Source of the DNA: Apostichopus japonicus
Lineage: Eukaryota > Echinodermata > Holothuroidea > Aspidochirotida > Stichopodidae
Length of the DNA stretch: 64,000 nt
Reading direction: 5' to 3'
Assembly: GCF_037975245.1 (NCBI RefSeq)
Contig: NC_092569.1
Coordinates: forward strand, 18,333,501 to 18,397,500
In this document: piece by piece, positions 9,283 to 35,110 of the stretch
Layout of the letters: each line of letters opens with the position of its first letter
How positions within the stretch are numbered: the first letter of the stretch is position 1
The notes under the pieces: model-generated
What the model saw: the letters and a program-made list of their open reading frames with translations, nothing else
Told to the model about the DNA's origin: nothing
The model's database searches: none
Translations under genes and position numbers: made by a program

Positions 9283-9420
9283 CCATTCAGCATTTTTTTA
9301 AATGATATCGCTAAAAGAGGCTAGGAAACATTTAGGGTTTCTAGGAACTATTTAAACCTGACTTTTATCCAAGAAAAAGAAAACTTTTTGTTCAACATTG
9401 ATAAATTTACCAGAAATTAT
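9283..9420 (+). repeat. left copy of an inverted ~120-bp repeat
   Basis: The core AGAGGCTAGGAAACATTT at 9316-9333 and surrounding bases match, in reverse complement, 35058-35076 and neighbouring bases, with further agreement over about 120 bp (for example GACTTTT then TCCAAG). The two copies lie just outside the two palindromic tandem arrays, 25.7 kb apart. They could be terminal inverted repeats of a large element or two unrelated dispersed copies. Confidence 0.5.
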
Positions 9421-9745
9421 ATTGCTTTTATTGACGTTTGCACTCGGGTATAAAAATATGGTATATATAAGGGAAAAATCTACGCTATGACTGTCATTGT
9501 CTTTAAACCTTCAAAATGTGAGTTAAAAAGGCAAATGCATTGTAATCATACTGCAGATACATAAATTTGAGACAAAAAATAACACAATGAGAAAATTATT
9601 CTTTGTTTGTACCAACTTATGTATTTCATGTTATATTTTATCTACATGACCATAAACTGAAATTTAGTAGGTTAATTTCTTACATGAATAAAGGAAGAAA
9701 AATACCTCTTGTCCCTGTACAAAAGTGAATCAGTGAAACAAATAC
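9421..9745. other. AT-rich spacer, nothing recognised
   Basis: AT-rich sequence between the inverted repeat and the tandem array. It includes a TATATAAGG-like string near 9463-9471, with no gene downstream to support it as a promoter. Confidence 0.4.
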
Positions 9746-9749
9746 ACCC

Positions 9750-10915
9750 CACAACTGCAAGGGAGTGTCATTTAGCACCAAGAAGAAACACCATTAATGG
9801 CTTACAATACAGTTCTGAGGGGCGTACCAATACGCCCCGCTAATGGTTGGAGTGTCATTTAGCACCAAGAAGTAACAACATTTAGTGGCTTGCAATACAG
9901 TTCTGAGGGGCGTACCAATACGCCCCACTACTGGTTGGAGTGTCATTTAGCACCAAGAAGAAACACCATTAATGGCTTACAATACAGTTCTGAGGGGCGT
10001 ACCAATATGCCCCGCTACTGGTTGGAGTGTCATTTAGCACCAAGAAGTAACAACATTTAGTGGCTTGCAATACAGTTCTAATGGGCGTACCAATACGCCC
10101 CGCTACTGGTTGGAGTGTCATTTAGCACCAAGAACTAACACCATTAAGGGGCGTACCAATACGCCCCGCTACTGGTTGGAGTGTCATTTAGCACCAAGAA
10201 GTAACAAAATTTAGTGGCTTGCAATACAGTTCTAAGGGGCGTACCAATACGCCCCGCTAATGGTTGGAGTGTCATTTAGCACCAAGAACTAACACCATTA
10301 AGGGGCGTACCAATACGCCCCGCTACTGGTTGGAGTGTCATTTAGCACCAAGAAGTAACAAAATTTAGTGGCTTGCAATACAGTTCTAAGGGGCGTACCA
10401 ATACGCCCCGCTAATGGTTGGAGTGTCATTTAGCACCAAGAACTAACACCATTAAGGGGCGTACCAATACGCCCCGCTACTGGTTGGAGTGTCATTTAGC
10501 ACCAAGAAGTAACAAAATTTAGTGGCTTGCAATACAGTTCTAAGGGGCGTACCAATACGCCCCGCTAATGGTTGGAGTGTCATTTAGCACCAAGAACTAA
10601 CACCATTAAGGGGCGTACCAATACGCCCCGCTACTGGTTGGAGTGTCATTTAGCACCAAGAAGTAACAAAATTTAGTGGCTTGCAGTACAGTTCTAAGGG
10701 GCGTACCAATACGCCCCGCTAATGGTTGGAGTGTCATTTAGCACCAAGAACTAACACCATTAAGGGGCGTACCAATACGCCCCGCTGCTGGTTGGAGTGT
10801 CATTTAGCACCAAGAAGTAACAAAATTTAGTGGCTTGCAAAACAGTTCTGAGAGGTGTACCAAAACGCCCCGCTAATGGTTGGAGAGTCATTTAGCACCA
10901 AGAAGTTACACCATT
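9750..10915 (+). repeat. tandem array with palindromic core and higher-order structure
   Basis: About 14 units each carry the palindrome GGGGCGTACCAATACGCCCC (8-bp arms, 4-bp centre) followed by a spacer starting GGTTGGAGTGTCATTTAGCA. The first units repeat about every 87-88 bp. From about 10085 on, long (about 88 bp) and short (about 64 bp) units alternate, making a higher-order repeat of about 152 bp copied roughly five times. Decayed units continue to about 11100. The long unit contains a TAGTGGCTTGCAATACAG block that the short one lacks. The same palindrome, one base different, recurs in opposite orientation at 33581-34446. Confidence 0.93.
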
Positions 10916-12455
10916 AGTTCTGAAATAACATAATAACACCATTAGGTGGCTAAGAATGCAGTTCTGAAGACCGATACACCCCCTACTGCTCGGAGTGTCA
11001 GTTAGCAATAAGAAATTACATCATTAATAACAACAATAAGTGGCTTACAATGCAGTTCTGAAGGATGTACTATTCAGACCCTCAGATTGCTCTAATGGGC
11101 ATACTGATACCCCTACTAATAATTTTTCACCAAAAAAATACAATAATAAGAGAAAGTCACTGTAACCTTACCCCCCCCCCCCTCCCCCCCCCTTTTTATT
11201 TCACACACACTTAAAACAAGCATTTTAGGATTTGCAGAGTAGAAGACCATGTGGCTGTTTCAGTGTTGCCACTTTCTGAACATGAACACATATACCCTAC
11301 AAGACAATTAACCTCCCTGTTGTCCCCAAATGACCTTTGACCTTCACCAAAATCAATACACTTCTTTTAATCAGTGCTATACACATTTTTTTCATCCTCT
11401 GTGATCTAGGATCATCCCTAGCAACAATAGTCACATTAAGTTCTGTGCCATCATCCCATCAAAGTTTCCTTGCAATGGTTTTCCTCTTGAACGCAATGGC
11501 CAGACCAAACAGACTCAGTGTGAGCATTTCTGTGTCATCTTCAGAAAAAAAGAGAGAAATAAAACTTTATTCTACACTGACAGTCTAACCATTTTATTTA
11601 TTTTTTATCTGTTGCATTGATAGTAAAAAAACAAATGAACAAAGACTGCAAATGTTTTTTGATATGATAAGTTAGCAGGACTATACTGTCATATGATTGC
11701 AGTGCTATCACTCTGCTGTCCTCTACAATCTGAGTAATACTATGACAGAGGTCACATTTCTGCCTGTATTAGTAGCCTACATGTTGTTCCCATTATACAA
11801 GTGAAGATTCCATTTGAATGTAATGTGTCCCCTTGGAGTAATATTGAATTAAAACATTGAATTTAATTTGATGTGACATTTGACCCCTGTTTCTGGGGGG
11901 GGGGGTCTGCTAGACATAGACTTTAACCCTAAAACACCTTCATACCAAGTTTTAAGAAAATCAAGCCAGTCATTGAAGAGGACTGTTTGACATAAAATTG
12001 GACACCCCACACAGACAACTTTTACCCCTCCCTCAGTCAAACACTTCCAGTGACCATGCAATACCCCACAATGAATGACCCCTATTGGGAAAACTAACCA
12101 CTACCATGGCAACTGTTGCATAATACTGTTAATGGTCCAACTGGCAAAGGAACTACAATATTGTACCTAATCCTTCCTATCAGAGTGATTAAATAACAAT
12201 TATTTGAAAATTCACATACTGTAAGAGAGCGATTCTGTGTGCACAACACAAATTTATGTGTTATGTGTAGACAAGGACTTTTCCATACACACTTTCAATG
12301 TCTTAATGCATAGGTCATTGCAACCTGAATATACAATATGGAGGAATGAGATGAATAACTGCTCGGCAAAAATTCTTCTATAAAAACAACATTCATAGTA
12401 GTCACCTTTACCTCAATGCTCATATGATGCCTGGTTTCCCCTATTTTGATGTGCT
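10916..12455. other. decayed repeat-rich stretch
   Basis: It opens with diverged units of the preceding array and a C-run near 11170-11192. Text around 11330-11580 and 11870-12060 contains TGACCTTTGACC-type motifs of the kind repeated at 12960-13920. The open frame at 11337-11588 is not supported. I see no intact gene, though the last exons of the minus-strand ParB-like gene could lie here undetected. Confidence 0.45.
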
Positions 12456-15400
12456 TGTTTGCTAACCAAAGTTTTGTATCTTTACATTCTTGTCTGGATT
12501 TCTCTCTCTCAGCTCCTTACAGGCTGTCAGATTGTGGATGCCACCAATAACTTCATAATGGTATCCATTTGCCTGAAAGAAAAATTTGTTACAAAATGTG
12601 AAAATGAATATATCAGTAACTTAAGTCAAAGTAGCGTAATGTCAGACTTTTGTCCTCAAAGATCAGGTGTAATTGACATGCAAACAGAAAGCCACAGGGC
12701 TTAGTGATTCCTTTGCCTATTGTTATTGTAGGGCATTGGAGGGGAGAGTTCTACTGAGTACTTGGGATCCACAGTGAAATGGAAAAAAAATCTCTTGCAA
12801 CTATTAGCAAAGGAGAACTAAATGTGTACTCAAAGATATGGTGTGGACAACCCTGAGTTATCATGTTTTCAAAGGTTTTTAATATTATGATGTATGTAGG
12901 AATCCACATGTCAAGTAAAAGATCTGTTCATGTTGTTCTTCTTGTCTAGGGCTAATATTGCCATGTGCATGGTGAGGTACCATGTTCAAGAAGTTTTTCA
13001 GACTGAAATTAACTGACCTTGAGTGACCTTGACCGAAACAGCCAAAAAAAAAGAAGACAAATGCTTAATTCCTATCAAATTTGAAATTTACCAAAACTTC
13101 ACTTCTTCAGCTAGAAAAGTTGTCAGTTGTTGACCACTAGTGACCTCAAATGACCTTGACTTCTCCCAACACACTATCAGCTGAGTATTTACTAAGAGTG
13201 TCTTCATACTGAGCATTAACTTCATGCAAGCTGTACTTAGTGAGATATGTTTTCAGAATTTAACTAAAATTTACCTCAAATGACATTTGACCTCAAAAAA
13301 GTTAACATTATAGATGGCAAGTATTCAATCAGAGGAACAAATTTGACATTCTATGTAGCTTTATTCTTTGAGTTAGCTCATTCACAAAGTTTTCAGGTTT
13401 AGACCATTGGTTATCTCATATGACCTTTGGCCCCTCCCAAAGCAATAGCAGTGAAGAATTTACTAAGGTGGTAGATACCGAATACATTCTTCTAATTGTT
13501 CAAAGTGTGAACTATATGTAAGCTGTACATGGTGAGATAACCTGTTAACAAAGTTTCAGATTTTTAGGTGGTGTGGACCTCAAACAATTTTTGACGTACT
13601 AAGTAACAGCAAGTGGTAAGCACTCGATTGAGGGATAAGCATACTAATTTCACTTAACCTTTACTTCAGTAAGGTCATTTATAGGGTTTATAACGGTTGA
13701 CCACTGGCAATTAAATAACAATTGCAGCTGAGAATTTGCTAAGGGGTAGCTTTCTACCAAGTATGAACTTCATGCATATTGCACTTGTTGAATTATCAAA
13801 GTTTTCAAAATTTGAGCTAAGGCATCTCTCTCTCACATATGCACACACAAGCAGTCACTGCTGCATGGGTTTTGATAAACAATTATGAAGCTCCATTATA
13901 AAAATCACTTTATAATCAAGTGCTGATTACTCACCGTGGGTTCTGAAAAATTCTCCAAGTTTTCCAAAGTTGTTGCTATAACAGTCAGTGGTTGATATTG
14001 TGGTTGTTAAATTCTAACATAGCCTCTTTTAGTTTGGTGAGAAATTACACATTCACTTCTCTCAACTTCCGACCAACTTCTAGATTTTCTATGTCAATAT
14101 TTGCAACACCTGTGGAGAAGTAAAAACGATGGTAAGTAAATTTCTGCAAAGCTAACATCAACTGACAGGGAAATGCCATACTGTAGGTATGCAAAAGGTT
14201 TTCCGTAAACTTTGTAAAGCTAAAAATACTATTCAAACCAAATGAACACAGTGACTATAGTGATTGTTAAAGTATGTTGAAAAGCAATGTTCAATTAATG
14301 AACACATTATTAATGGGGTTCTGACCCCTCCATGATAACACTCAAATAAAAACTGATACTTCTATTGATGTTGTAAATTTCTGGTGAAAAGTCAACAGTT
14401 GAGGCAGTTCTTAATGGGCATGCAGTAGGAGGCATACAGATGGCTCAGTATGAAGGACACTGCACAGAAACTGATGTAAAATGAATTTAACAGCTGCCTA
14501 CTGTCCTTTTAGTTGTGGGTTGCTGAATATTACTCATACAGTATGCGGGCCCACCATGGTAGCCACAGGAGAAAATTTTGACTAACAAAAGGCCAAAAAT
14601 AGATTGCTGAAAATGGAAGATGATTGTTTTAGCATCTAGGACAAACTTTTACCAATGTTTTTTCGTGTTGAAAGTTAATGCTTATTCAAATTCTCTTCAA
14701 TTTTTCTTTTTGTCCAGTAAATTGGTGAACCAAAAGGTTTGGTTTTTTTTTCCCTTTGTTTTTTGGTGGGCCAGATTAGATTGTCTGGCATGCTCAATCT
14801 GGCTAGTAGGGGCCCCCTGTTCTAAAACCACAACAGTTCCAATTCCTGAGGCAGTATATTGTACTGCTACCGTACCTGACAGCTTCTAAGGGTTCTCACC
14901 TAAGAATGCTGCATTAACTTCCTTCTTGATGAATTCTAAAGGGCTGACAACTGGCTGATCCTTATTACTCTTCCTCTTTTTGTGAAGCACAGGTTACCCT
15001 TTGCTGAGCCTTTCTTTTCTCTTTACTTCCTGATGTTGAGGGTCTGTTTTAAAGTGGAAAAGAGCAGTTAGTAAACCTGAATATGATAATATGCTAGTGT
15101 CCTTTGACTCCTTGGACTCCAATATCTCAACCCCAATCTTGGCCCAATGTCTGACCCAGAGGGGAGAAGGGGTACACATGAGGCTTTCACCCCCATGAAA
15201 TTGAAGACTGTAAACATTTTACTGCACTGGTGCATGTCAGTCTCTGAAGCAATAATATTCCTTGTTACTATATCATATTGATTCAAAACTAATTATATAG
15301 TTGCAATAAAATTTTAGGATTTTGGAGTAGCCGACAACAGGAACGAAATTAGGATTTAGGAGCACTTCACGTTTTAACAATTTTGATATGTTAACACTAT

Positions 15401-15611
15401 CCTGGCTTCACTGATTAAATAGGCTTAGGGCCTAGCTCTTGCTAAGTTGGAGTTGGACGTGACAATGTTATTTTCTACGAAATTTTAACAGATTTGTATT
15501 TGCAAACAACAAAGACACACGTTGTTTTTTTTTTTAAATGAAAGCTGAAGGTTAAGGAACGTGAAGCATCAATCGAATTAATCAAATAGCTGCACGAAAT
15601 TAGGACTCACC
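12456..15611 (-). CDS. ParB/sulfiredoxin-fold-like protein gene, partial exon model
   Basis: Minus-strand exons can be read at 15043-14900 (PSTSGSKEK..., then PLEFIKKEVNAAFLG), 14109-14049 (VANIDIENLEVGRKLREVN), 13975-13935 (NNFGKLGEFFRTH) and 12572 to about 12490 or 12456 (NGYHYEVIGGIHNLTACKEL). A non-coding first exon probably ends at 15611 with a consensus donor. The 15043-14900, 14109-14049 and 13975-13935 exons join in compatible phases through GT-AG sites. The order, an I-ENL...GR.LRE start and then a YEVIGG.H...A motif, resembles ParB/Srx-fold domains known in bacterial partition proteins and in scattered invertebrate proteins. Problems: an extra base in the A-run near 14990 breaks the first coding exon, and at least one exon between 13935 and 12572 is missing from my model. 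The function is unknown. It may belong to the surrounding mobile element rather than the host. Confidence 0.45.
12960..13920. repeat. degenerate repeats with TGACCT motifs
   Basis: Several diverged units of roughly 200-250 bp recur, each with phrases such as TGACCTCAAATGACCTTGAC, TTTACTAAG, CTTCATGCAAGCTGTAC and GTGAGATA. They lie in what would be an intron of the minus-strand ParB-like gene. They look like an old interspersed or tandem family and not coding sequence. Confidence 0.6.
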
Positions 15612-16075
15612 TTTGATGTTGTGACCTAGCCTACACAGACTTCAATCTGGAAATAGTGTGCACGCTACCTAGGGCCTAAGTTAGAGCCCGTAGAGGCCCC
15701 TTTTCTTCTAAGTTCTATTTGAGGCGTATTACAACGAACCGAACTTGTCAGAAAAATTGGCAAAATCGCATGGTCAATAACTTCCTGGGCTCCTGCCTTT
15801 AATTGTACCGTAAATTGTCGAGAGGACTAATAAATTTAAAATGCCGGTATATCCTAGTCATTGAATCAACTTGAAGTAGGCCTAACGTTTAATACTAACT
15901 CACATCATGTAGTGTACTTCACTTGTTCACCTTTGACCCTCAAGTTTTATGTCAAATTCACGTACGTACATAATATAAGCTTAAGGAGGTAGCACTTGTA
16001 TGTTACTACGCGACTGTGGTCGCCGTTTTCTTGTTCGTCGGAAAATATCACAGAAACAGATTGTAGTAGTAGAAA
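15612..16075. other. upstream region of the ParB-like gene
   Basis: It contains the probable non-coding first exon (ending at 15611 on the minus strand) and its upstream sequence. No clear TATA box is visible. Nothing else was recognised. Confidence 0.35.
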
Positions 16076-16083
16076 CCGTCAGG

Positions 16084-16817
16084 CAGGGGCGTAGCGAGCG
16101 GGGGGGGGTGTGGGGGGGGGGTGTCACACCCCCCAATAATTTGGTCGCTGTCGGCAAATTTTGGGTCTGTCGGCAAAAGGAGAAAAGGTGAAGAGAGCGG
16201 AAGGGGAAGAAAGAAGGAAAGCTGAATAGAAAAAGGAGAACGGGAGCTTCTTCCGTGCCAAATTTGATTTAAAATATGCACCAGATTGCATCTAAGGACG
16301 TTCAAACTAATTTTTCCAAAGGGGAGGGGTAGACCCCCTACCCTTAGACCCCTCCCCCATTTCAGTCACCACTTCCAGATCCGTCGGCAAATCAAATTTG
16401 ACTTAAAATATGCACCAGATTGCATCTAAGGACGTTTCAAACTAAAACCTTTCCAAAGGGGAGGGGGACACCCCCTCCCCTTAGACCCCTCCCCCATTTC
16501 AGTCACCACTTCCAGATCCGTCGACAAATCAAATTTGACTTAAAATATACATCAGATTGCATCTAAGGACGTTTCAAAACTAAAAATTAGACCCCTCCCC
16601 CATTTCAGTCACCTCTTCCAGATCCGTCGGCAAATCAAATTTGACTTAAAATATGCACCAGATTGCATCTAAGGACGTTTCAAAACTAAAACTTTTCCAA
16701 AGGGGAGGGGGACACCCCCTCCCCTTAGACCCCCCATTTCAGTCACCACTTCCAGATCCGTCGGCAAATCAAATTCTCCACACCCCCCCCAACAAAAACC
16801 CCTTCGCTACGCCCCTG
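16084..16817. mobile_element. hAT-like non-autonomous element with 8-bp target duplication
   Basis: The element begins CAGGGGCGTAGCGA and ends with its reverse complement, TCGCTACGCCCCTG. It is flanked on both sides by CCGTCAGG (16076-16083 and 16818-16825). Eight-base duplications and CAGGGGCG termini are typical of the hAT superfamily. The 734-bp interior has no transposase. It consists largely of four imperfect copies of a unit of about 130 bp (16258-16780) containing ATGCACCAGATTGCATCTAAGG and TTCCAGATCCGTCGGCAAAT. A related stretch occurs in the fragment at 21703-22110. Confidence 0.92.
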
Positions 16818-16825
16818 CCGTCAGG

Positions 16826-18645
16826 AGTGTCACTCGTTGACTTGTTAAATGGCTGTCAGCTTTGCTTGTTATTGCACTTGCTTCAAGTAGCATTTTTTCA
16901 CTCACAATCAAGTCAGAATTGATTGAAATATCTTTTCTAATCAGTTTGGGTTGAGGACAAGCCACACTACATGACACGGACGTTTTTTTCGTCAAAGTCA
17001 GTCTAGAGCAATGTATAGGGTGTCCATTATGTGCTTGCATCAACAACTTAAAAATAGTAATACACAAAATATGACGACAGATCATGAAGAAGTTCGAATT
17101 CAAAGTATAACGTTAAATGCTTGTCTACACTGCGGTTGGACACCTGCAATCACAAATAAGTTACGCTTGGCAGTTACATTAGCACACTGCGGTTCAAGCG
17201 TCCTTTGACTCGAGTCAGAGAACAATAGTATTCACTGTTGATGTCAGTTCTGTATGAAGATAAAAAACACTGATAATGTGCATTCTGACAGTTAACCCAC
17301 CACAATGGAGGTTATAGGTCGGTTAATTACGCGGTGACTTGATTCGGTTTTTCAAGAATGGTATGGTTTAGACATTTTATCCTTCACTGACCTTTTCAGG
17401 TTTGCCAAGCAGAATTACCAGAGATTCTTAGACTCCAGAAGTTATAAGTACCATATACAGTGTCAAAACTCCTTTTTATTCTCAGAGGGTTATGGAATAA
17501 TTTGTCTGAGAAAGTTGTACTTGCAAGTAGTGTACGAACATGGGAAGTATCACTTCCTTGGTAAGAAAGGCTTTGGGTGTTCATTTAGAATATTTGAGAA
17601 CAAATGGAGAGTGAATGCTTCCAGGAAAGTACTCTTTGAAAACGCCTAGCAATTTTAGCGTGCTATGATTTGGGGCGATTGGCTATGCACTTTCAATTTA
17701 TTTTAAAAGCATACCCATATACATGCAAGAACCAAAAACTCCACTTGGTTATTCTTAACACAAAATATATTTCATTATACGGAAATAAGTCCAAAATTTT
17801 TCCTCACCTTAATGCTGTTTGGGATCGGCGGTATATTTCGAATCTTCATGTAATTGGTGACAAGGGCTCTTTGGTTCCAAAAGTAGAGTCCGGACAAGTC
17901 CGAAAAAAAGAAAAATCTTGAGTCTTCCTCTGCCACACACCAATTTCTTGGTCTCGTCATTTTATAAAATTATTATTTAGGCGTTTCGAACTTTTTCGCA
18001 ACTTCGGCTCTACGATTTTGCGTTTGGTGCATCCGTGCATGAGCAGTCTAACCTTGTCAGGGTATAAATACGTTGGCGGTCTGAACAACTCCCTGGTCTA
18101 ACAAACGTATACGTATGTGTATGCAACTACCACAGTGAAAATTAACGATATCAAATAATAGTGCGGATGTTTGTGGTAGAAAAAAGACAACAAAGTCTGG
18201 TTGAACATCTCCACGTTTGCGGTCAACATCGAGAGGGCCGATGAAAGATGATATTACGTAATCATTCCTATCACGTTGCGTTCTCTCACACAGGAAATGA
18301 AGGTTAACGTTTTTTAAGTTGACGACATGCCATGGCCTTAGCCTTTATTTAGAACTATAGTTGTAAATAATGAAAACAGTGTGTTTGGCGAATAGGATCA
18401 TTTATATACCTACCAGTATGTGTATGCATGGAGGTCAAAAACAGGTAAAAAAACCAGGTAAAATGGAGGTAAAAACAGTTTAACCTCCATGGAGGTAAAA
18501 ACAGTTTTCCCTCCATGGTGTATGCATGTGTGCATGCGTGAGTGTATGTATGCAATGCATGTACGTGTATAGGTATGGATGGATGGGAATAACAAAGAAG
18601 CTGCATTAAACAAATATATGATGCATTTCATTGAAAATAAGGCTG
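16826..18645. other. no gene recognised
   Basis: Open frames at 17011-17208, 17396-17584 and 17670-17921 have no domain or splice support. Near 18424-18520 a short unit (GGAGGTAAAAACAG) repeats imperfectly, followed by a TGTATG-rich patch. Confidence 0.45.
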
Positions 18646-18649
18646 CAAT

Positions 18650-18775
18650 AATATATATATATATATATATACATATATATATTTATATATATATATATAC
18701 ATAAATATATATTTCTATATACATATATATATATACATATATATATATATTTATTATTATTATCATTATTATTAT
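18650..18775. repeat. compound (TA)n / (ATT)n microsatellite
   Basis: TA repeat with interruptions passes into an ATT run. The run lies at the 3' side of the minus-strand Penelope-like relic. Confidence 0.93.
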
Positions 18776-18844
18776 TATTATAGAAAACCAGAGAAATAAG
18801 ATATGACTCATAATTGACAAATAAGGAGTAAAGTTTTAGAAAAT

Positions 18845-19345
18845 ATATTAGAATTTCGGTCCCCTTGGGGCCTTCGTTAGCAATACTTGGCAGTCGAATG
18901 AAAAGTACAAAATATACTAACACAATGAAATTTTGACGCTAGATAAGTGTAAGTTGCATTGATGGAATTAAAAACCAAATAAACCATGACTATACAGGAA
19001 GCGGATGAATGAGCAAAGAACGGATAACATGTTTGTAGAACTGATAGTTGTTAAGGCACTTAAGGGGTCCCAAGTCTTTGTCGAGGCCGGTGACTTAATA
19101 CGAAAGATCCAATCGATTTCTTTACGTTTACGTTCAGTAGCGAATTTGAAGTTCGAGGCAATTAAAATACATTTTTAGTTTTTGAGAGAATGTCTATGAA
19201 GATTGAAATGTTCGGAAACGGGGAATCTGATCAAATTATCTCGAAATATACTATTTGTGATTACTAAAACGTAAGCGGAACCGGGAGCCTGTTCACCTAC
19301 ATAATTGCCCTCTTTGCAAAGTACACAATAGAAAATGTAAATAAC
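18845..19345 (-). mobile_element. Penelope-like element, GIY-YIG endonuclease relic
   Basis: Minus-strand translation gives a degenerate GIY-YIG domain as found at the C-terminus of Penelope-like retroelements. It shows a CKEGNYVGE start, a FPVSEHFNLHRHS block with the conserved HFN...H spacing, then FKFATERKRKEIDWIFR with the conserved glutamate-rich helix. At least one in-frame stop (after HSLKN) and further stops after KTWDP show it is dead. Downstream, AACGAAGGCCCCAAGGGGAC resembles the terminal hairpin-like string of this group. No reverse-transcriptase portion is visible upstream. Confidence 0.72.
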
Positions 19346-19584
19346 ATACCACAAAAGAGGGAATGGGGATAGTTGACTATAGTCTTAGACCCGTTACCGT
19401 TAAATATCATTGAATTTCTGTTATTGCGTGATTCCTGAAGAACAGATAAATGAAACGTTAACCTATGTGTACAACAAATTTTACATCATTACTCACTATC
19501 ACACATTCCCACTAGGATATTTTTAGTATTCAACAGGGTTGTATACATTTAGGTTGTCCCTTGCAATTTTAAAGTGAGTGTACG

Positions 19585-20902: not shown

Positions 20903-20910
20903 AGTGTACG

Positions 20911-21702
20911 CATACACACGGCACGTCGAATAATACACGGGCGAAACTCGCAGTGTCCTGCATTACCATTGAACTTCTGAGTTCGTATATTTTTCAAGAA
21001 ACCGACACGGATACATACGACAACGTATACCAATATGTAAATGTCTCTCAAGATCGGTATGTCATAGGCACCTATAGATGACTGAATTTCCCAGTGAGGT
21101 AAAATTCCTCCTAGATGGTAATCAAACGGTTTAAGAATTTTACCCAAAGGTGACCATATTTTAATATGTAGCATATATGGGGCCAATACATCATAACTTT
21201 AAGCCTTCGAAATAACCTATTGTAGTTGCATATAACAAGGTTTGAACCTAACTGGAGACCAAAACTTCCCCGTATGCAACACCTTTGAAAAATAAAGAGG
21301 CGCGGGGGGGGGGGGGTCGGAAAGAGGATTCAAGAAAGTTTGTAATATATAGGCTTCTTAAATAGTGCAGTTCCTAAAGGGTCTACTCGTTTGTATTGGG
21401 TTTTAATGCCTTCTAAATCGCTTAATTTTCAAACAGTTTCTGTGAAGACTACTATATTTCAGTCATACTTTCTCAAGCGTGGGCACAATGCCTAAGCGTG
21501 GGCACAAGAAAGCGTGGGCACACATGCATGTTAACCAATATGTATATGTGTAGTGTACGCGGCTGCGTGCAGTACATATGTTATCTATGTATATATGTTA
21601 ATCGTAATGTCTTTTTCCCGTTTTGATAGATGGGCTATAGTATGGGGTGCCTCCTATGATAGTAAGAAACCAGTTACCATTAAGTACCATTGACGTACCC
21701 AT
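20911..21702. other. no gene recognised
   Basis: Short G-run at 21305-21316. A short direct repeat of AAGCGTGGGCACA occurs three times near 21475-21523. Nothing coding. Confidence 0.45.
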
Positions 21703-24410: not shown

Positions 24411-24419
24411 TGGATCTTG

Positions 24420-24427
24420 TATAAAAG
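24420..24427 (+). promoter_or_regulatory. TATA box of the transposase-like gene
   Basis: TATAAAAG is followed about 30 bp later by a probable short non-coding first exon ending at 24459 with the consensus donor GTAAGT. This is a plausible promoter for the plus-strand gene relic that follows. Confidence 0.45.
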
Positions 24428-27400
24428 CACAAGTCCAAGGAACAGATTTAAGAACTTAGGTAAGTGCTAATTTTCAAATTTAATCTTTATAGCAGCAAAT
24501 ATGCTCATATACTTCATTATTGCATACTGTACATGGTGCAAATTGCTATAATTTATTTCAGGCTTTTCCAGTTACAAACATGCCCCTCCCCCAAGAAAAA
24601 AATAACAAAACATAAATAACAGTTTTGGCATATATATGTCCCTGCATGGTCCAGTGTGCAGATTTTTACTCACATTTGTTGCTCTCACTATGTGTGATTG
24701 TGGGAACTAGGGACTGTGTCCCAATGGCTAGGAAAATTATTGAAGGTCAGGCTATTTTATTGAAGTTAATGAGTTTTGTCCTTTTTTACAAGTTGTACTG
24801 AAGTTTGGTAGAACACTACCATTTCGACAAAATATTGTCAACTAAAAATTCACTTTTCAACATTGCAGCATTGATACTGACATTGGAGAAGTCCTCTCCC
24901 TCCATACAACCACATACAGTACCTCACAGATGTGCAAGATTTCATAACAGGGCTACACAGTCTGCATAAAGTACTAATCTCAGAAGCAATCGATCACAAC
25001 AATATTGTCTTGCCTGATTGCAACTCCATTGTGGAAATAAAACCTGAAAACTTTGCCTCTTTGGTTGTGGTCAAACAGTGTGTCAATAAAGGATCATATG
25101 ACACCTAGCCAGTTCATATCACAGTGTAAGGCAGTCTATACTGCAGCAACCAACAGTGAATATATACAGTCTTCAAAAGCAGGGTTAACCACAGAAAGGG
25201 AGTAAAACTGTTGAGCAGTGGTCATGCTGTGAGGACTTACTCTTTCAATGCATGCCATTGTGCTCCACTTACATGGGAAACAAAATGTGTGAAGGAACCC
25301 TTACAAATTTTAACAAATTACCAGTTTTCTGTCAGAATGTAAAGAGGATGATCCTGACAAATTGGACATTGAGCCAACTCTTTTCTTATCTCCACACAAA
25401 AGCAAGGGAAATACATCCCTACCTAATACACTTAAAAGGAACGTGAGCATGGATAATGAAATGGAAAATTTGGAAGAGGAACCAACTTTAAATAATCATA
25501 CTAAAACAAAACTTTCACTGCCGTTTGAATGGGGCAGTCACTGTGAGTCACAACATCAGTACTATTTCTCCAGATACAACAAATGATTCGCTGTGGTTGT
25601 ACCTTGACATAAGTTCAAATGGAAGTAGTAGCAGTAGCTTTGGTATTGCCAGAGAATTTTCTGCATCAATTTCTTCATGTGATCAAAACCTTTTTTTTTT
25701 ACCAGGAGTGAGAAAAAACGAAGGAGACCCAATCAAGCATTTGATCCACTGCCTATGTTCCAATCTGATTGCTGTGATGGTAGCTGTATCAAATCGCTTT
25801 CTTACGATGACCTAGAACAGTCTTTTCTAGAGGTTAGTGAAGTGAGGGAAACTTAGCTAAAGCAATTCACTCTGGACAAGATTTGGATTCATCAGGAAAG
25901 ATCATGTCACACCTGAGACAAATCTTGTTCTATTTATGTAATTTGTGGGAAGATTGTATGTGAGAAAGCATTTTGTATGTTCTTTGGTATTAGTAGCAAG
26001 TTATTCAAAGATTGTCTGAAATAATTTCAAGTTGGCAAGAAAAATGCAATTCATGGCAATAAAGGCAAGAAAAGGATGAGAACAAAACTCCATTTGCACT
26101 AGCTTGGATGAGGTGTTTATTTGAACATATTGGAGATTACATGCCCCACAAAACAGAAGTGCACCTTCCAGTGTCATACACAAAGACTTCTCTCCATGCA
26201 CGCATGAAGAAGGAAATGATAGATAGAAATTGGCATTGGTGAACAAAGCATCATTTCCAAGGAATACTTTATGGAAATCTTTAGAAGAGTTCAAGATTCC
26301 TAATTATTTTATCTTGTGAATGTGCATGGATTTATGACAGTTATTGTTGCATACATTGCATGGGAAAAGGGGAATAAAATTTCAAATTCCTCATAGCTAG
26401 CCTAGTAGCTTTAAATTGATTAACTAGCATGAAGACATTGATAAAGTAAACTGAAACTTGTGAGGTCGAAAGTGTTGTTGTAAGACTGTTTTGCCAGAAT
26501 TATCACACAAACAATAGCTGTGTACATTACAAATGATAACTTTCAAGTACTGTACATGGTCTGCTGATCAATCACAATTGGTGGGTTATAGCCGGGGTGT
26601 CAAAACCACAGGCATTGCATCCTTTTATCTTTGCTGACTATGTAGGCTTTAACTTCATACAATCCAGTGACATTTAATCTGTTTAGTTAACTACATGTGC
26701 AGTCCATTAAACATTTCTTCAGAAAAATTCATGTGTCTCTATTGTTAGCTTCAGTTTCAGCAAGCACAAAGACTGTACTGTACATACTGGAGAGAATACA
26801 CCTCACAGCTAGTGTGCCACTAAAGCTGCATTATCATTCCTTAAAAACATTAGAATTATTGTCAAAAAATTTGATTTAAAGAAGTTCTAAAGAACATGTG
26901 ACATAAGTTTGATTGCAACCTCCACTCAAATCAGGAGTAAAAGTGCTTTCTGCTGAAATGTCAATGAACAACTCCCTTAGATAGTGACATTTTCAGAAAG
27001 TTCCCCCAAATATGCCAGAAATTGAAATATGCTTACCTTTGGTCAAACTTCTTTAATTGTTTTAATTTCCACCTTTGAGGACATTTACCTCAACTGTCTG
27101 GGAAAATGATTAGGGTCTTATTTCCAAACATCCCTATCAATTGGTCTAATAAATAACATGAGAAGATGTTGTACAGCTTTACTTGTTCTTTTCTCAATTA
27201 GCTACTCTCAGCACCCTATACTCCTTTAAAGGAATTCTCTAAAGTACCTAAAAGAATGCTTAACTTCAGTTATAATTAGTAAACAATTTCAACATGCTCA
27301 TTGCATTATTCTATGGGTATTCATAAAAACAACATGGTTCAAATTGACACAATAAAACTCTATCACTAATCACTACATAACTTTTTCTTGATTAGGTTAA

Positions 27401-27842
27401 GCAGTTCAATTTTACACCATTGTGTGAAGTAAAACTTGTACTTTAAATGCTTAATTAAAGTATTTCAACATTATATTTTTCTAGACGACTGAGTTTACTG
27501 TGGGTGGTACTTGAAAGAGGTAGCGGAAAGAACAAGGAGTGGAAAGGAAAATGAAGAATGCCGACAATTGCAAGAAGTTCATCTTAATCATCTTAAGTGA
27601 GTCAAAATATTTTACTAATTTAGAATTAAAAGTTGATGTCTGCTTTCCTTTTTGAATCCTTGCAGAAGTCAAAAGCAATAGAAAGACTATCTATTCCTTC
27701 AAGTCCTCTATATGTGTGGGTGTGTCAGTGATGCTCCTAGTTAACACTTATCTCTTTCAAAAACTTGCTTGAACTACAAATTGGATATAGTAGCCCTAAC
27801 TAAGATGACAAACCCTAAAGTTCAGAGAAAGGTCATTGGATC

Positions 27843-29090
27843 GGTCTCAATTTTTCGTAACAAGTAATTAAAATGGCAGAAAATGAGATAGGGGCCTTTT
27901 CTGGCCCTACTCTGAGTGTGCTCTATATTCACAAGCAAAGGCATGTTTGAGTTTTAATTTCCATAGGATCCTTGCCCAGTAGTAGTTGTACGGGAAAAGT
28001 GCAAAAAAAAGTCAAGTGGGTGGTACGTTTTATGAACAGCGCCCTCAAACTTAAGAAATCTCACTTCTGGCCCTAATTGGGGGTCCATTTTGGGCCTGTG
28101 GGTATATTACAATTTTTTTTTTTAAATACCATTTTTCAGGAGCGTATTGACCCTATTTTTAGAAACTCAAGTAAAAAAGTTGTGTATTTTGTGTTATCTA
28201 CTCAAATTTCTGACTCGAAAATTGCGAAAATCACCTCGTTCATATGTATGAAAATGCTTGCACAAGCCGATTTGAGTAATTCAAATGACAACAACTTCTT
28301 AGCATTAGCATACAGGTGCTTAACAATTAAGAGGGTGGTCTACTAGCATAAGGACCACAAATAAACTGCATTTCCAGGGTCATATGTTGAACGATGTCTG
28401 TGAACAGCACCCTTAAACATCACATTTTACCAATATGTTGGGCTATTTTGGGCATTTCAAGGTCAAATTTGGTCACAATTAAAAATTTTTTTTTTGGTTT
28501 TTAATACAAAACTAGTAAGATATATGTATAGTTATGATGCAAAGAATGAGCTAAAACATCTTTTATATTAGTTATTAATGCTCTGATGAGCAGCTTAAAG
28601 TGGCGTATGAGAGTTACATCAGCTCTACAGAAACATGCTTGCGAGGGCAAACAGTGGTAACATTGTATCTTCATTCAAGGAGATGTTAAACAACATTAGA
28701 AACTATTGAAATGTATTTATTAAAAGTGTTCTGTCTAATACTCTTTGACTCCCTCTCACCCCCACCCCCAGCACCCTCCCCATAGTGCACTAAGCAGATT
28801 TGTATACACACAGTATGTGACTGACTTTTACTGCATAGAGACTGCATAAACATGCATTCAAGGTATACTGAATGTTTTGGTATGGTAATCTTCTGCTTCA
28901 AATTGTCTGTATGCATGTAACCCACCCCTCCCACCCACATCCTCTACCCAACCCTATATCAGAATAGAAAATTGTGAACCAGTGCGTACAGTGTGCACTA
29001 TATATGTGTGTACATGTTCAGTATGTGTGTTATTTTACACCAAGCAAATAAAATACACACTGTCCACAATCATGTACAGTACACACTGTG
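27843..29090 (+). repeat. left arm of a 2.9-kb inverted repeat
   Basis: The sequence from GGTCTCAATTTTTCGTA onward is repeated as reverse complement in 29448-30716 with high identity. Matching landmarks include AACAGCGCCCTCAAACTTAA (28035) and its complement at 30509. The whole inverted repeat sits in the intron between the transposase-like exons at 27596 and 32107. No coding capacity was recognised in it. Confidence 0.88.
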
Positions 29091-29447
29091 TACTGGTCAT
29101 TCCATTCAATACTGTGCATATATCAATGTCATTTTAAATATTTGAAATGTAGTGTATGCTTTTGCTAATTCAATGAATTAAAAGACTTTCAATAATTTAA
29201 AAGGAATGTTTAACCAGTACATAAATGTGCAGTGTGTATACTGTACATGATTTTGGACAGTGTTTATTTAAAAGTGCTTGGTGAAAAATAACACTGTACT
29301 GAACATGTACACACATATATAGTGCACACTGCATAGTGCATACTGTGCATATTTCAATGTCTTTTTAAATATTTGCAATGAAGTGTATGCATTTTCTAAT
29401 TCACTAAATTAAAAGACTTTTAATATTTTAAAAGGAATTTTTAACCA

Positions 29448-30716
29448 GTACATACATGTACAGTGTGTATACTGTACATGATTTTGGACAGTGTGTATTT
29501 AAATAGTACTTGGTGTAAAATAACACTGTACAGAACATACATGTACACACATACAGTATATAGTGCACACTGTACGCACTGGTTCACATTCATTTTCTAT
29601 TCTGATATAGGGTTGGGTAGAGGATGTGGGTGGGAGGGGTGGGTTACATGCATACAGACAATTTGAAGCAGAAGATTACCATACCAAAACATTCAGTATA
29701 TGCATGTTTATGCAGTCTCTATGCAGTAAAAGTCAGTCACATACTGTATGTATACAAATCTGCATAGTGCACTATGGGGAGGGTGTTGGGGGGGGGGTGG
29801 GGGTGAGAGGGAGTCAAAGAGTATTAGACAGAACACTTTTAATAAATACATTTCAATAATTTCTAATATTGTTTAACATCTCTTTGAATGAAGATACAAT
29901 GTTACCACTGTTTGCCCTCGCAAGCATGTTTCTGTAGAGCTGATGTAACTCTCATATACGCCACTTTAAGCTGCTCATCAGAGCATTAATAACTAATATA
30001 AAAGATGTTTTAGCTCATTCTGTGCATCATAACTATACATATCTTACTAATTTTGTATTAAAAACCGAAAATAAAACTTTTAATTGTGACCAAATTTGAC
30101 CTTGAAATGCCCAAAATAGCCCAAAATATTGGTAAAATGTGATGTTTGAGGGCGCTGTTCACAGGCATCGTTGGGCATATGACCCTGAAAATGCAGTTTA
30201 TTTGTAGTCCTTATGCTAGTGGACCACCCTCCTAATTGTTAAGCACCTGTATGCTAATGCTAAGAAGTTGTTGTCATTTGAAGTACTCAAATCGGCTTGT
30301 GCAAGCATTTTCATACATATGAACGAAGTGATTTTCGCAATTTTCGAGTCGTAAATTTAAGTAGATAACACAAAATACACAGCTTTTTGACTTGAGTTTT
30401 TAAAAATAGGGTCAATACGCTCCTGAAAAATGCTATTTAAAAAAAAATTAAAAAATACCCACAGGCCCAAAATGGACCCCCAATTAGGGCCAGAAGTGAG
30501 ATTTCTTAAGTTTGAGGGCGCTGTTCGTAAAACGTACGACCCGCTTGACTTTTTTTTGCACTTTTCCCGTACAACTACCACTGGACAAGGATCCTATGGA
30601 AATTAAAACTCAAACATGCCTCTGCTTGTGAATATAGAGCACACTCAAAGTAGGGCCAGAAAAGACCCTATCTCATTTTCTGCCATTTTAAATACTTGCT
30701 ACGAAAAATTGAGACC
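29448..30716 (-). repeat. right arm of the 2.9-kb inverted repeat
   Basis: Reverse complement of 27843-29090, separated from it by about 360 bp of related, internally repeated sequence (29091-29447). Mirror-image small open frames with the same CMFMQSLCSKSQSH string occur in both arms, a by-product of the repeat. Confidence 0.88.
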
Positions 30717-30867
30717 GTAAATTTTCCTCAAAATTAGCTAAATTCGAAAACTGGCCACATGTCTTCCACAATATCTGCAATATCAGACATAAAATACTTA
30801 ACATTTATGCAAAAAATGCCTCCAAACTTGACACAAATTAAGGGCTCTTAAAATGCAATCTGGATTT

Positions 30868-31033
30868 GGTTGCTAGGCGGGGCCGTATCCTAGCAAGGAA
30901 AATTTAAAAAAAAAATTGTTTGCCCAATTTCATCCTTTGAGACATATGGCAAGACACCATATCAATTTCAGGCGATTCTGAGAGGGTCGACGTGGAGGCC
31001 ACTGTTGATTTGGCATGGATTGACCCATATGTG
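30868..31033 (+). repeat. direct repeat copy 1 with small hairpin
   Basis: Begins GGTTGCTAGGCGGGG, with TTGCTAGG...CCTAGCAA forming a hairpin, and ends GGCATGGATTGACCCATAT. It repeats at 31808-31983. Confidence 0.8.
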
Positions 31034-31790
31034 TGTAAATGTTCAGTACAGTGTTATTTTTACACCAAGCACTAAATAAATACACACTGTCCACAATCAT
31101 GTACAGTACACACTGTGTACTGGTCATTCCATTCAATACTGTGCATATTTCAATATCATTTTAAATATTTGCAATTTAGTGAATGCTTTTGCTAATTCAA
31201 TAATTAAAAGACTTTCAATAATTTAAAAGGAATGTTTAACCAGAACATAAATGTGCAGTGTGTACTGTACATGTTTTTGGACAGTGTTTATTTAATAGTA
31301 ATTGGTGTAGAATAACACTGTACTGAACATGTACACACATATATAGTGCATAGTGCATATTTCAATGTCTTTTTAAATATTTGCAATGTAGTGTATAATT
31401 CGTTTGCTAATTCAATAAATTAAAAGACTTTCAATAATTTAAAAGGAATGTTTAACCAGTAAATACATGTACAGTGTGTATACTGTTCATTATTTTGGAC
31501 AGTGTGTATTTAATAGTACTTGGTGTAAAATAACACTGTACTGAACATGTACACACATATATAGTGCACACTGTGGACCATACCAATAATTCAGTATACC
31601 TTGAATGCATGTTTATGCAGTCTCTTTGCAGTAAAAGTCAGTCACATACTGTATGCATGTATACAAATATGCATAGTGCACTATGGGGAGGGTGTGGGGG
31701 GGGGGGTTGGAGTCAAAGAGTATTAGACAGAACCCTTTTAATACATTTCAATAGTTTTTAATGTTGTTAGCATGGCTGATGTAACTCTCA
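31034..31790 (+). repeat. partial third copy of inverted-repeat inner sequence
   Basis: It repeats, with deletions, material of the inner right arm and loop: the ACACTGTCCACAATCATGTAC phrase, TTTAAAAGGAATGTTTAACCAG units, and the GCAGTAAAAGTCAGTCACATA block followed by a G-run. It lies between the two 170-bp direct repeats. Confidence 0.75.
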
Positions 31791-31807
31791 TTTTCGCCAC
31801 TTTAAGT

Positions 31808-31983
31808 TGGTTGCTAGGCGGGGTCGTAACCTAGCAACGAAAAAGTTTTCAAATCTTTTTTTTGCCCAATTTCATCCTTTGAGACATATGGCAGGACACC
31901 ATATCAGTTCCAGGCGATTCTAAGAGGGTCGACGTGGAATCGACCCAAAAATCTGTTGATTTGGCATGGATTGACCCATATAT
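31808..31983 (+). repeat. direct repeat copy 2 with small hairpin
   Basis: Second copy of the 30868-31033 unit. Here the hairpin arms GTTGCTAGG and CCTAGCAAC are perfect 9-mers. The copy carries about 14 extra bases before CTGTTGATTTGGCATGG. Confidence 0.8.
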
Positions 31984-33530
31984 CATTTACATTATTTCTC
32001 AAATGATATTGGATCAAAACTCAAATCAATATTTCTTATCTGATATCGTAAACCCTGTATCAGTTAAGAGTTTATTTTGTATCATTATATGTTCTATTTT
32101 TACTAGGTCAAAAGGAGAGCAGTAACATCTTGCCCGCACTAAGGCGTGCCAGGTTTCTTTGGAACTGAATACCCTTATAGTCGATGGAATGGACCAATCA
32201 AAGACTGATCTGCCACATTTTGTCCAGAGTGATAAGGATGTAAAACATCCACATCCACATAACAGGTCAGTATTATCATGGAGGTCTGTTTTACCTCCAT
32301 GGTATTGTGAAGTGACCTAAGAGTGCACAAGACGGAGAGTGTTTATGTCATTATAAGTGTAACCATCATGTTTTCTGGTTTCCGAAAAATTGTAATCCTA
32401 CAGTATGAAATTGTAATGTCATGTTGGTGTATAGTACAGTATGTATGTGCGTGAGCAGTATTTGTGTGTGGGTGTTTATACAGGGTGTTTGTTTGTATGA
32501 TGCCTTGTTTTACAACACAATGTCTCAAGAGGGGAAGTTTGATTATCTTCATAAATAGTATAAGGATGGACACCTAAGGTTACAAGAAGTCTAGTGTTCC
32601 TATTGTTTTGGTTGAGGTCAAATCAATTCTGTTCTTTATTTGTTGTTCTGATAAAGAGAATGGCCTTAGTATCCATCAAATATTATGTGACTGTTTTGTT
32701 TTGTTTGTTAAAGCACATAGTACAGGTTAATTATCAAACTTTATTTAACAGCAGAAAACAAGTAATAACAACCTCTTTATCATACATGTCAATGAAGTAG
32801 TATATATATATTCATTCTTCTCTTTCTTTTCAGGTGGTCTAATTCACACTAAAGGTCCATGTGACAAGTTTGCATATATGTTATGACTGATCTGAAGCAT
32901 ATCCAACATGATTCAAACATGACCATTACATGCAATTTGTGGACACTAGTGAAGCACAAGGATACTCTTGGGAAGGATCTGTTTTTGCAAATGGATAATT
33001 GTTACAGGGAGAATAAGAACCGCTATCTTCTGTCCTTCTGCCCTTCTGCTCCTTGCTTTTAGAGTAGAAGATCTTCAGAGTGGTGATATATATAAATGTT
33101 ATAACTTTGCGAAAGAAGTTATTGAAGTATCTGACTATATTAAAGTTGGGAATATAGCAGCCGTAAACCTCATTGATTCAAGCACACGACCATACTTTGG
33201 AGAAGTCACTAAAATTGAAAAGGATGAGGTTATTTTACATTGGATGAAGGGATCCTGGACTGGAGACTGGAAACTGCTAGACTGTGGCCAAGGAAGAAAT
33301 AAGCAGCCATACACACCATCAGTTTCTTTCCATTCCTTAATGTTCTGGGACTTAAAATTTAACCCATAAAAATCGCCTTCCAAAGAGGGAAGTCTGTGAC
33401 TTGAAAGAAAGATATGCAGCTATAGATCAAGAATTTGAGCTGAATAACTAGGAAACCTTATGTTTTACACATACTATTGATTGGGCAGTGTGTACTCTTA
33501 TTTTCTTGCAACAACTTGTGTAAAAGAAGA

Positions 33531-34465
33531 TATGTAGTTTTGAGAAACACACACAATTTTCTTGGTGTATTGCTACACTTAACTGGTTGGGGCGTACTGG
33601 TACGCCCCAAAGATATATACAATTTATCATAGTGGTGTATTTCTACTCTAAACTGGTTGGGGCGTACTGGTACGCCCCAAAGATATATACAATTTATCAT
33701 AGTGGTCTATTGCTACACTTAACTGGTTGGGGCGTACTGGTACGCCCCAAAGATATATACAATTTATCATAGAGGTATATTTCTACACTTAACTGGTTGG
33801 GGCGTACTGGTACGCCCCAAAGATATATACAATTTATCATAGTGGTATATTTCAACATTTAACTGGTTGGGGCGTACTGGTACGCCCCAAAGATATATAT
33901 AATTAATCATAGTGGTGTATTGCTACACTTAACTGGTTGGGGCGTACTGGTACGCCCCAAAGATATATACAATTTATCATAGTGGTCTATTGCTACACTT
34001 TAACTGGTTGGGGCGTACTGGTACGCCCCAAAGATATATACAATTTATCATAGAGGTATATTTCTACACTTAACTGGTTGGGGCGTACTGGTACGCCCCA
34101 AAGATATATACAATTTATCATAGTGGTCTATTGCTACACTTAACTGGTTGCGTACTGGTACGCCCCAAAGATAAATACAATATATCATAGAGGTGCATTT
34201 CTACACTTAACTGGTTGGGGCGTACTGGTACGCCCCAAAGATATATATAATTAATCATAGTGGTGTATTGCTACACTTAACTGGTTGGGGCGTACTGGTA
34301 CGCCCCAAAGATAAATACAATTTATCATAGAGGTGCATTTCTACACTTAACTGGTTGAGGCATACTGGTACGCCCCAAAGATATATACAATTTATCATAG
34401 TGGTGTATTGCTACACTTAACTGGTTGGGGTGTATTGGAACGCCCCAAAGATACAAAAAATATTG
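33531..34465 (-). repeat. 70-bp tandem array with palindromic core
   Basis: Thirteen units of 70 bp each contain GGGGCGTACTGGTACGCCCC on the plus strand (9-bp arms, 2-bp centre) followed by AAAGATATATACAATTTATC. Unit 9 has lost three or four bases of the left arm, and the last two units are diverged. Read on the minus strand the palindrome differs by one base from that of the array at 9750-10915. The array begins about 80 bp after the last codon of the transposase-like gene. Confidence 0.95.
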
Positions 34466-35057
34466 TACAATATATCCATTTTGCCCCAAAATGACTATTT
34501 ATCAAAAAATACTTGCATTTTATGTTCGCTTTGGGAAAATCATACCAAAAATAATCATATATTAAATTTTTGCTATATTTTGTCAACTTGATTGATAAAA
34601 ATCTTTGCTTTTGTTAGTAAGTGATGGTTTATTCAAAATTCAGTGAATGTTATGGCTAAATTGCTTAATTTGTTAGTATCTGTAACAGCTAACTCTTTTA
34701 AGACATCTAATCCACCAGAATTGAGATAAAATGTTTATGTCTGCTCGTTTTACTATGAATTAACAAGGTAACACTGTTGTATAAAATTATTCCATTTAAA
34801 TGGCTATTTATCCTGCATTTTTGAATAAATGTATATTTACAGAATTTTACAAATAAGAAATGTTACATGCAAATAAATGAGAAAATACGCAACATATTTC
34901 ATATGTCATATTTTTCATGTACTTATATAATGAAAAAACCAGGCCTTGGTTAACAGACCACATTTCAACGTAAAATGTTTGAATTCACTCGTACATCTTT
35001 CATTTTTCAGCTTTTACTTGGAGAAAAAGTGAAAAGTCATATTTCCTTAATTACCCA
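34466..35057. other. AT-rich spacer, nothing recognised
   Basis: AT-rich sequence between the array and the right inverted repeat. No gene or motif recognised. Confidence 0.45.
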
Positions 35058-35110
35058 AATGTTTCCTAGTCTCTTCTAAGTAATTTCAAAATAGAAAGTG
35101 CTTAGAGGCA
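34990..35110 (-). repeat. right copy of the inverted ~120-bp repeat
   Basis: Reverse complement of 9283-9420 around the core at 35058-35076. See the left copy for the comparison. It abuts the GGCGCTACGC-rich dispersed repeat that follows. Confidence 0.5.

What the first reader, a model, noticed from the sequence alone, without database searches (positions are those of the whole stretch)
9283..35110. Possible ~26-kb two-gene mobile element bracketed by inverted palindromic arrays
Two tandem arrays 23 kb apart are built on 20-bp palindromes that differ by one base when one array is reverse-complemented. Outside them lies an inverted similarity of about 120 bp. Inside, a ParB-like gene (minus) and a DUF7869-type transposase-like gene (plus) diverge, each with its 3' end towards an array. 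This symmetry suggests one large DNA transposon with subterminal repeat arrays, a layout I do not recognise from any described superfamily.
Basis: partly seen in the sequence, partly recalled or inferred. Interest (0 to 1): 0.75.

Follow-up and report, generated by a model that had tools for sequence, protein, structure and literature searches.

The report
Giant two-gene DNA transposon
This 26-kb stretch is one copy of a large, recently mobile DNA transposon in what is probably a sea-cucumber genome; it carries two broken genes and, near each end, an array of palindromes, and it fits none of the transposon superfamilies I could test it against.

Summary
Window 9315-35075 (25,761 bp) is one insertion of a DNA transposon with 23-bp terminal inverted repeats (20 of 23 identical) and a 4-bp target duplication (CTAA here). 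In the same 671.6-Mb genome the terminal repeat occurs 88 times (control 0) and pairs into 37 elements, 31 of the 33 main-type ones 22-45 kb long. The 4-bp duplication is exact in 17 of 19 copies read at both ends and flanks are unrelated. An empty paralogous copy of the host repeat confirms the insertion point. The palindromic arrays lie just inside the termini; over 424 right-array units the palindromic core varies about five times less than the rest, as expected of a binding site. One gene encodes DUF7869, found in 35 of 37 pairs, mostly truncated, complete in three. The second, divergent gene is in 31 of 37. The 'ParB-like' label is not confirmed. Most likely DUF7869 is the transposase, complete relatives move the giant broken copies in trans, and the arrays help assemble the ends. 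DUF7869 matched no other transposase family in Pfam and no held paper names it.

The parts
9315..35075 (+). whole transposon copy, 25,761 bp
   Evidence: end of homology at both sides in other copies, TIR and TSD
9311..9314 (.). target duplication CTAA, left
35076..35079 (.). target duplication CTAA, right
9315..9337 (+). left terminal inverted repeat AAGAGGCTAGGAAACATTTAGGG
35053..35075 (-). right terminal inverted repeat, 20 of 23 identical to the left
9762..10916 (+). left subterminal array, 14 palindromic sites
   Evidence: recurs in other copies
33563..34453 (+). right subterminal array, 13 palindromic sites, 70-bp unit
   Evidence: recurs in other copies
   Evidence: C9:18345965-18346075
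13917..14107 (-). second gene, upstream exon, broken by a frame break and stops
25683..26239 (+). probable N-terminal coding pieces of the DUF7869 gene, frames broken
   Evidence: read by eye; no Pfam match
32116..32265 (+). DUF7869 gene exon (LIVDGMDQ...)
   Evidence: exon ends by eye
32871..33041 (+). DUF7869 domain, truncated (profile 23-81 of 192)
8797..9314 (.). left part of the host repeat (about 2.1 kb DNA transposon, TIR CAGGYGCGTATCCAGG) into which the element inserted
35076..36705 (.). right part of the same host repeat; TAAAT repeats at 8792-8796 and 36706-36710

Best explanation
Window 9315-35075 is a non-autonomous copy of a giant two-gene, cut-and-paste-type DNA transposon family. 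Shown: 23-bp TIRs, a 4-bp target duplication, 37 paired copies in one genome, subterminal palindromic arrays at fixed sides, two divergent genes inside, broken in this copy. Inferred: the DUF7869 protein is an RNase H-like (DDE/D) transposase that cuts at AAGAG/CTCTT and inserts at staggered 4-bp sites; a dimeric DNA-binding protein, either the transposase or the second protein, binds the palindromes, loads many subunits on each end and helps bring together ends 20-45 kb apart; relatives with complete genes act in trans on the giant broken copies, which share the same gene lesions and therefore moved after those lesions arose.
For: TIR pattern 88 hits vs 0 control; 37 left/right pairs in element geometry vs 1 pair in any other geometry within 45 kb. 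TSD exact at 4 bp in 13 of 15 copies (2 of 15 match at 2 bp, 0 at 3, 0 at 5, 1 at 6); best of 20,000 shuffled pairings 7; 4 of 4 further copies match. Flanks: no same-strand similarity among 19 left or 28 right flanks. Empty paralogous target in L025. Ends 98% identical on average. DUF7869 in 35 and second gene in 31 (E 1e-3) of the 37 pairs. Complete DUF7869 exons in three copies with this right end, C22:19.53-19.57, C12:24.97-24.99 and C8:11.10-11.11 Mb, each with a matching 4-bp duplication; joined C22 exons E 7.8e-63. Second-gene exons without stops in two of those three (C8, C22). A 2.7-kb copy at C14:24.69 with the same kind of ends, neither gene matched, and a CCAG duplication suggests that the ends suffice in cis. 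Palindrome core 1.8% vs 8.7% divergence. A second, distant family (39-45% identity in the second gene, E 1.4e-5 and 0.02, with 2 TGA) keeps the divergent gene pair at C17:24.69-24.71 Mb and, mirrored, at C16:42.32-42.34 Mb.
Against: No catalytic activity or fold of DUF7869 was tested; the D / D / HTHEDVDQ motifs are by eye, and PDB sequence searches found nothing. The low-variation block of the right-array unit is wider than the palindrome (unit positions about 15-51), the core ranks sixth, not first, among 70 circular 20-bp windows, and array homogenisation could also keep it uniform. Left arrays of other copies were not read. The second gene's function is unknown. Two of 19 duplications match at 3 of 4 bases only. 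C12:24.97-24.99 has complete DUF7869 but no second-gene match, and in C8 the two genes' exons are only 0.9 kb apart, so 'complete' copies may have lost parts. 14 of 88 TIR hits stay unpaired.
Confidence: 0.75

Rival explanations
1. DUF7869 and the second protein are cargo or regulators; the transposase of these ends is a third, unseen gene elsewhere (the giant copies and the DUF7869-bearing copies are all passengers).
For: Most copies have a truncated DUF7869 (32 of 53 PF25273 matches are the same truncated exon, profile 23 to 80-82) yet have moved recently; only five loci hold complete DUF7869 exons, two of them in another family; no fold evidence.
Against: 35 of 37 pairs carry DUF7869; complete exons occur in three copies with this right end; a distant family keeps the same gene pair. 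Pfam frames scanned inside the element gave no other transposase domain (weak sub-threshold hits only: Acetyltransf_5 E 0.095, HU-CCDC81 E 0.034). Not scanned: plus strand 9315-17019 and above 33600, minus strand below 11100 and above 33200.
Confidence: 0.17
2. Dispersed segmental duplication or a repeated host gene pair, not transposition.
For: Genes with introns, large size, many copies on one chromosome (C16 12 of 37).
Against: Exact shared ends, 17 of 19 four-bp duplications, unrelated flanks, empty target.
Confidence: 0.01
3. Endogenised virus or Polinton/Maverick-like element.
For: Large size, short TIR.
Against: No polymerase, capsid or integrase domain in the Pfam frames scanned; Polintons have 6-bp duplications (recalled), here 4.
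Confidence: 0.02
4. A diverged member of a described DNA-transposon superfamily whose transposase is too distant for Pfam to link (for instance one with 4-bp duplications such as Academ, Sola2 or Ginger; recalled).
For: TIR plus short TSD is the general cut-and-paste anatomy; Repbase sequences could not be searched here.
Against: DUF7869 full-domain match (E 7.8e-63) with no transposase family among the other hits up to E 10 (Pirin, Lep_receptor_Ig, Tautomerase_3 at E 0.07-0.14); termini AAGAG..CTCTT fit none of the termini in the passages.
Confidence: 0.25

Closest known systems
CACTA/EnSpm (CMCT group)
   Same: Two-gene elements with many short subterminal sites bound by one element protein (recalled) and short TSDs (CMCT 2-5 bp, passages of PMC12730594)
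   Different: CMCT termini are mostly CA..TG; here AAGAG..CTCTT; DUF7869 shows no Pfam link to them; palindrome-cored arrays of about 1 kb
KolobokP and other composite Kolobok elements (PMC9587614)
   Same: Two-protein DNA transposons reported in echinoderms among other phyla (abstract)
   Different: Those have long terminal direct repeats and a His-Me finger nuclease (abstract); Kolobok TSD is TTAA (recalled), here varied 4-bp sequences
KDZ (Zisupton/Kyakuja/Dileera)
   Same: Eukaryotic DNA transposons that carry accessory genes (passages)
   Different: Zisupton 8-bp and Kyakuja 7-bp TSDs (passages)
Galileo/Foldback P-superfamily elements (PMC3573991, PMC3688188)
   Same: Internally repetitive ends with multiple transposase-binding sites (titles and abstract openings in the listing)
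   Different: There the repeats form long TIRs; here the arrays are subterminal and differ between the two ends

Membership tests
Cut-and-paste DNA transposon (TIR class) | terminal inverted repeats | tested here: met
   23 bp, 20 of 23 identical; 88 genomic hits, control 0
Cut-and-paste DNA transposon (TIR class) | fixed-length target duplication | tested here: met
   4 bp exact in 17 of 19
Cut-and-paste DNA transposon (TIR class) | DDE/RNase H transposase | not tested
CACTA/EnSpm (CMCT) | CA..TG termini (most members) | tested here: not met
   termini AAGAG..CTCTT; definition from passages of PMC12730594
CACTA/EnSpm (CMCT) | 2-5 bp TSD | tested here: met
   4 bp
Zisupton / Kyakuja | 8-bp / 7-bp TSD | tested here: not met
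   exact at 4 bp in 13 of 15; 0 of 15 at 5 bp, 1 of 15 at 6 bp; 7 and 8 bp not computed
hAT | 8-bp TSD, 5-7 bp in some lineages | tested here: not met
   definition from passages of PMC12730594
Kolobok / piggyBac | TTAA target (recalled) | tested here: not met
   one TTAA among the 17 exact duplications
Polinton/Maverick | PolB, integrase, capsid genes (recalled) | tested here: inconclusive
   no such Pfam domain in scanned frames; some frames not scanned
Academ / Sola2 / Ginger | transposase homology | tested here: inconclusive
   no Pfam link from the joined complete DUF7869; Repbase proteins not available
ParB partition proteins | ParB_N domain | tested here: not met
   no Pfam ParB_N match in the joined exons or in the genome at E 10 (an unrelated DUF5376 at E 0.022 in 114); PHROG ParB E 0.12 only

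The most novel reading that the evidence does not exclude
DUF7869 defines an undescribed superfamily of eukaryotic DNA transposons: 4-bp target duplications, AAGAG..CTCTT termini, a conserved divergent partner gene, and long subterminal palindrome arrays that serve as centromere-like loading platforms for an element protein so that ends up to 45 kb apart can pair.
Probability: 0.45. Interest if true: 0.85.

Novelty: new variant of a known kind. Interest (0 to 1): 0.74.

Why it matters
DNA transposons of 22-45 kb with exact ends and target duplications are, to my knowledge, large for animals; [quoted passage not shown] The family would give a function to a domain of unknown function, DUF7869. 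It also offers a system in which end arrays, a partner gene and complete partner copies can be compared, so how long transposons bring their ends together becomes testable. Copies appear to carry nested repeats along and are unevenly spread over chromosomes.

Tried and rejected
Larger element 8797-36705 with TAAAT duplications: turned out to be the host repeat into which the element inserted. Viral contigs with the DUF7869 exon and with the second gene: no relative confirmed at E 1e-3. Phages and plasmids by tblastn with the second gene: none. PDB by sequence: nothing meaningful. ParB_N in the whole genome: none. Literature: searches (DUF7869: 0 papers) showed no description of such an element in the titles and abstract openings listed (lists capped); only open-licence PMC papers are held. 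Read in part: PMC9587614 (abstract), PMC6431247 (section 5 and passages), PMC10344927, PMC12730594 and PMC4455052 (passages). No structure was predicted: the gene is split into exons, and the single-exon DUF7869 ORF at C20:9563474 could not be fetched.
Full report
Observation. Tandem Repeats Finder shows a left array at 9762-10916 and a right array at 33563-34453. The 20-bp palindromes in them differ by one base when one is reverse-complemented; there are 14 sites on the left and 13 on the right and none elsewhere in the window at 5 mismatches or fewer. An inverted similarity of about 93 bp lies outside the arrays. It scores just above the best of 500 shuffles (43 against 42) and 2 of 2000 random segment pairs of the window reach it. 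Pfam DUF7869 matches on the plus strand. No ParB family in Pfam or NCBIfam matches the second gene.

Termini. The genome search became usable (G000, 671,581,487 bases in 35 contigs; window = C9:18333501-18397500). Size and largest-contig length (C16, 46.036 Mb) fit the published Apostichopus japonicus assembly (671.60 Mb, 23 chromosomes up to 46.02 Mb; passages of PMC10344927); this identification is an inference. Right-array matches fall in about 37 places by my count of a capped list. Left-array matches pair with most of them in one geometry. Homology ends near window 35075-35079 in most right-end loci. Aligned ends give AAGAGGCTAGGAAACATTTAGGG at 9315 and, reverse-complemented, AAGAGACTAGGAAACATTTGGGT ending at 35075.

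Target duplication. Of 35 rows, 15 had both ends read cleanly; the 4 bases outside are identical in 13 of 15. At other lengths 2 of 15 (2 bp), 0 (3 bp), 0 (5 bp) and 1 (6 bp) match; the best of 20,000 shuffled pairings is 7. The two misses (C4:2.5 ATAT/ATAG, C17:36.3 AGTA/AGTT) match at 3 of 4 bases. The 20 rows not counted had only one end fetched, an end not found in the fetched piece, or an altered end (C4:5.08, C20:18.6). Two of those rows were completed later and two new copies read; all four match: TCTT, CACG, CCAG, GTAT, so 17 of 19. The C14 copy's right end reads CTCGT, not CTCTT. No two of 19 left flanks (250 bp) or of 28 right flanks (400 bp) are similar on the same strand. The 17 duplications favour T then A in the middle (11 of 17 each).

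Empty site. In L025 the window's left flank (to 9311) continues directly into its right flank (from 35079), apart from small differences, one of them at the junction itself (CTAA there reads CCA). The flanks belong to a host repeat of about 2.1 kb with ends CAGGYGCGTATCCAGG and TAAAT duplications at 8792-8796 and 36706-36710. So the element went into an older DNA transposon. L025 is a paralogous copy of that repeat, not an allele.

Copies. The TIR pattern with up to 2 mismatches has 88 hits and none in the reversed control. They pair into 37 elements, 35 of them under 45 kb, with a single left/right pair in another geometry; 14 ends stay unpaired. Of 33 main-type pairs, 31 measure 22.3 to 44.8 kb, median 28.5 kb; the other two are 45.2 and 124.5 kb. 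A second type (AAGAGGATAGG left end) has pairs of 2.7, 15.2, 16.6 and 37.0 kb. C16, the largest contig, holds 12 of 37 (binomial P 3.9e-6). Mean pairwise identity is 0.980 over 28 right ends and 0.985 over 19 left ends.

Genes. DUF7869 in the window stops at profile position 81 of 192 and the coding frame then breaks. Of 53 PF25273 matches in the genome, 32 are this same truncated exon (profile 23 to 80-82); 30 of the 32 lie inside paired elements. In all, 35 of 37 pairs hold a DUF7869 match; the exceptions are both on C14. Sets of exons reaching 191-192 occur at five loci: C22:19.56, C12:24.98 and C8:11.10, each about 3.5-4 kb inside a right end of this family and each of the second type, and C16:42.32 and C17:24.71 of another family. 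Joined exons of the C22 copy with one window exon match DUF7869 at E 7.8e-63 over 11-192. Of 20 right-side loci, 19 were readable in the DUF7869 exon; 16 show the same frame break and three (L017, L024, L026) keep a longer 122-aa frame that still lacks the second half of the domain. The second gene, on the other strand, gives 123 exon matches and lies in 31 of 37 pairs at E 1e-3, 33 at 0.05, 34 at 1; it is not found in the 2.7-kb C14 copy, C12:24.97-24.99 and C6. In most main-type copies its first exon carries a TGA and a TAA; in C8 and C22:19.54 both exons are open. A distant pair of loci (C17:24.69-24.71 and its mirror C16:42.32-42.34) has a 39-45% identical second gene, with 2 TGA, diverging from complete DUF7869.

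Arrays. Across 424 right-array units from 31 copies the palindromic core differs from consensus at 1.8% of positions and the rest of the unit at 8.7%; 353 of 424 keep both 8-bp arms complementary. The low-variation block is wider (unit positions about 15-51). Against the reading: the core is sixth-lowest of 70 circular windows, and array homogenisation is an alternative. Genome-wide the exact-arm motif occurs 922 times with 0 in the control; the 50 distinct sites shown lie in two copies on C1; the other 872 were not listed. Left arrays other than the window's were not read.

Mechanism. Exact ends, fixed 4-bp duplications, unrelated flanks and an empty target show transposition. That DUF7869 is the transposase is inferred from its place in the element, its completeness in relatives with the same right end, and by-eye acidic motifs (VDGMDQ, LDN, HTHEDVDQ). 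Shared gene lesions in many recently moved copies imply movement in trans. The arrays as binding platforms are inferred from conservation and palindromic form. The name ParB for the partner rests on resemblance by eye (YEVIGGIHN) and failed the profile tests, so no parS-like claim is made beyond analogy.

Comparison and novelty. TIR plus TSD make it a DNA transposon. CMCT termini, KDZ/Zisupton and hAT duplication lengths do not fit (definitions from passages); TTAA families do not fit (recalled definition). Repbase proteins could not be searched, so a link with Academ, Sola or Ginger is open. DUF7869 is in none of the held papers. I rate it a new variant of a known kind, with a fair chance of being a new superfamily.

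Noticed in passing
6157-6630 (+), about 42300-42680 (+), about 61150-61500 (-): Three fibrinogen C-terminal domain exons (PF00147, E 1.5e-28, 1.5e-29, 9.5e-25): the element sits in a cluster of fibrinogen-related genes.
   Followed up: partly
16084-16817: Short hAT-like element with 13-bp inverted ends CAGGGGCGTAGCG and an exact 8-bp duplication CCGTCAGG (16076-16083, 16818-16825), nested inside the transposon.
   Followed up: partly
27842-31770: Nested inverted composite repeat (27842-29093 against 29458-30717, 93%) apparently in an intron of the DUF7869 gene; L009 and L010 carry its right-hand part without a break as far as the fetched stretch goes (window 28762 and 28969 onward) and L025 the part from 29549, so it seems to have moved with the element.
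   Followed up: partly
35116-35267, 35842-36020, 36553-36705, 55745-55900: Four copies of one repeat end (GCGATCT...GCGCCAACC.ATGGTGGCGCT.CGCTTAGATA), all on the plus strand.
   Followed up: partly
G000:C16: 12 of 37 paired copies lie on C16, and seven of its left ends fall between 14.6 and 19.8 Mb; cause unknown (insertion preference, low recombination, local hopping).
   Followed up: no
G000:C20:9563474, C12:32587140, C17:7458637: Distant DUF7869 matches in open frames of 875, 366 and 245 aa (E 1.1e-4, 2.0e-5, 4.7e-4): other DUF7869 families in the same genome.
   Followed up: no
G000:C1:3183886-3308397: A left/right end pair 124.5 kb apart, possibly one element with large nested insertions or a rearranged pair.
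   Followed up: no
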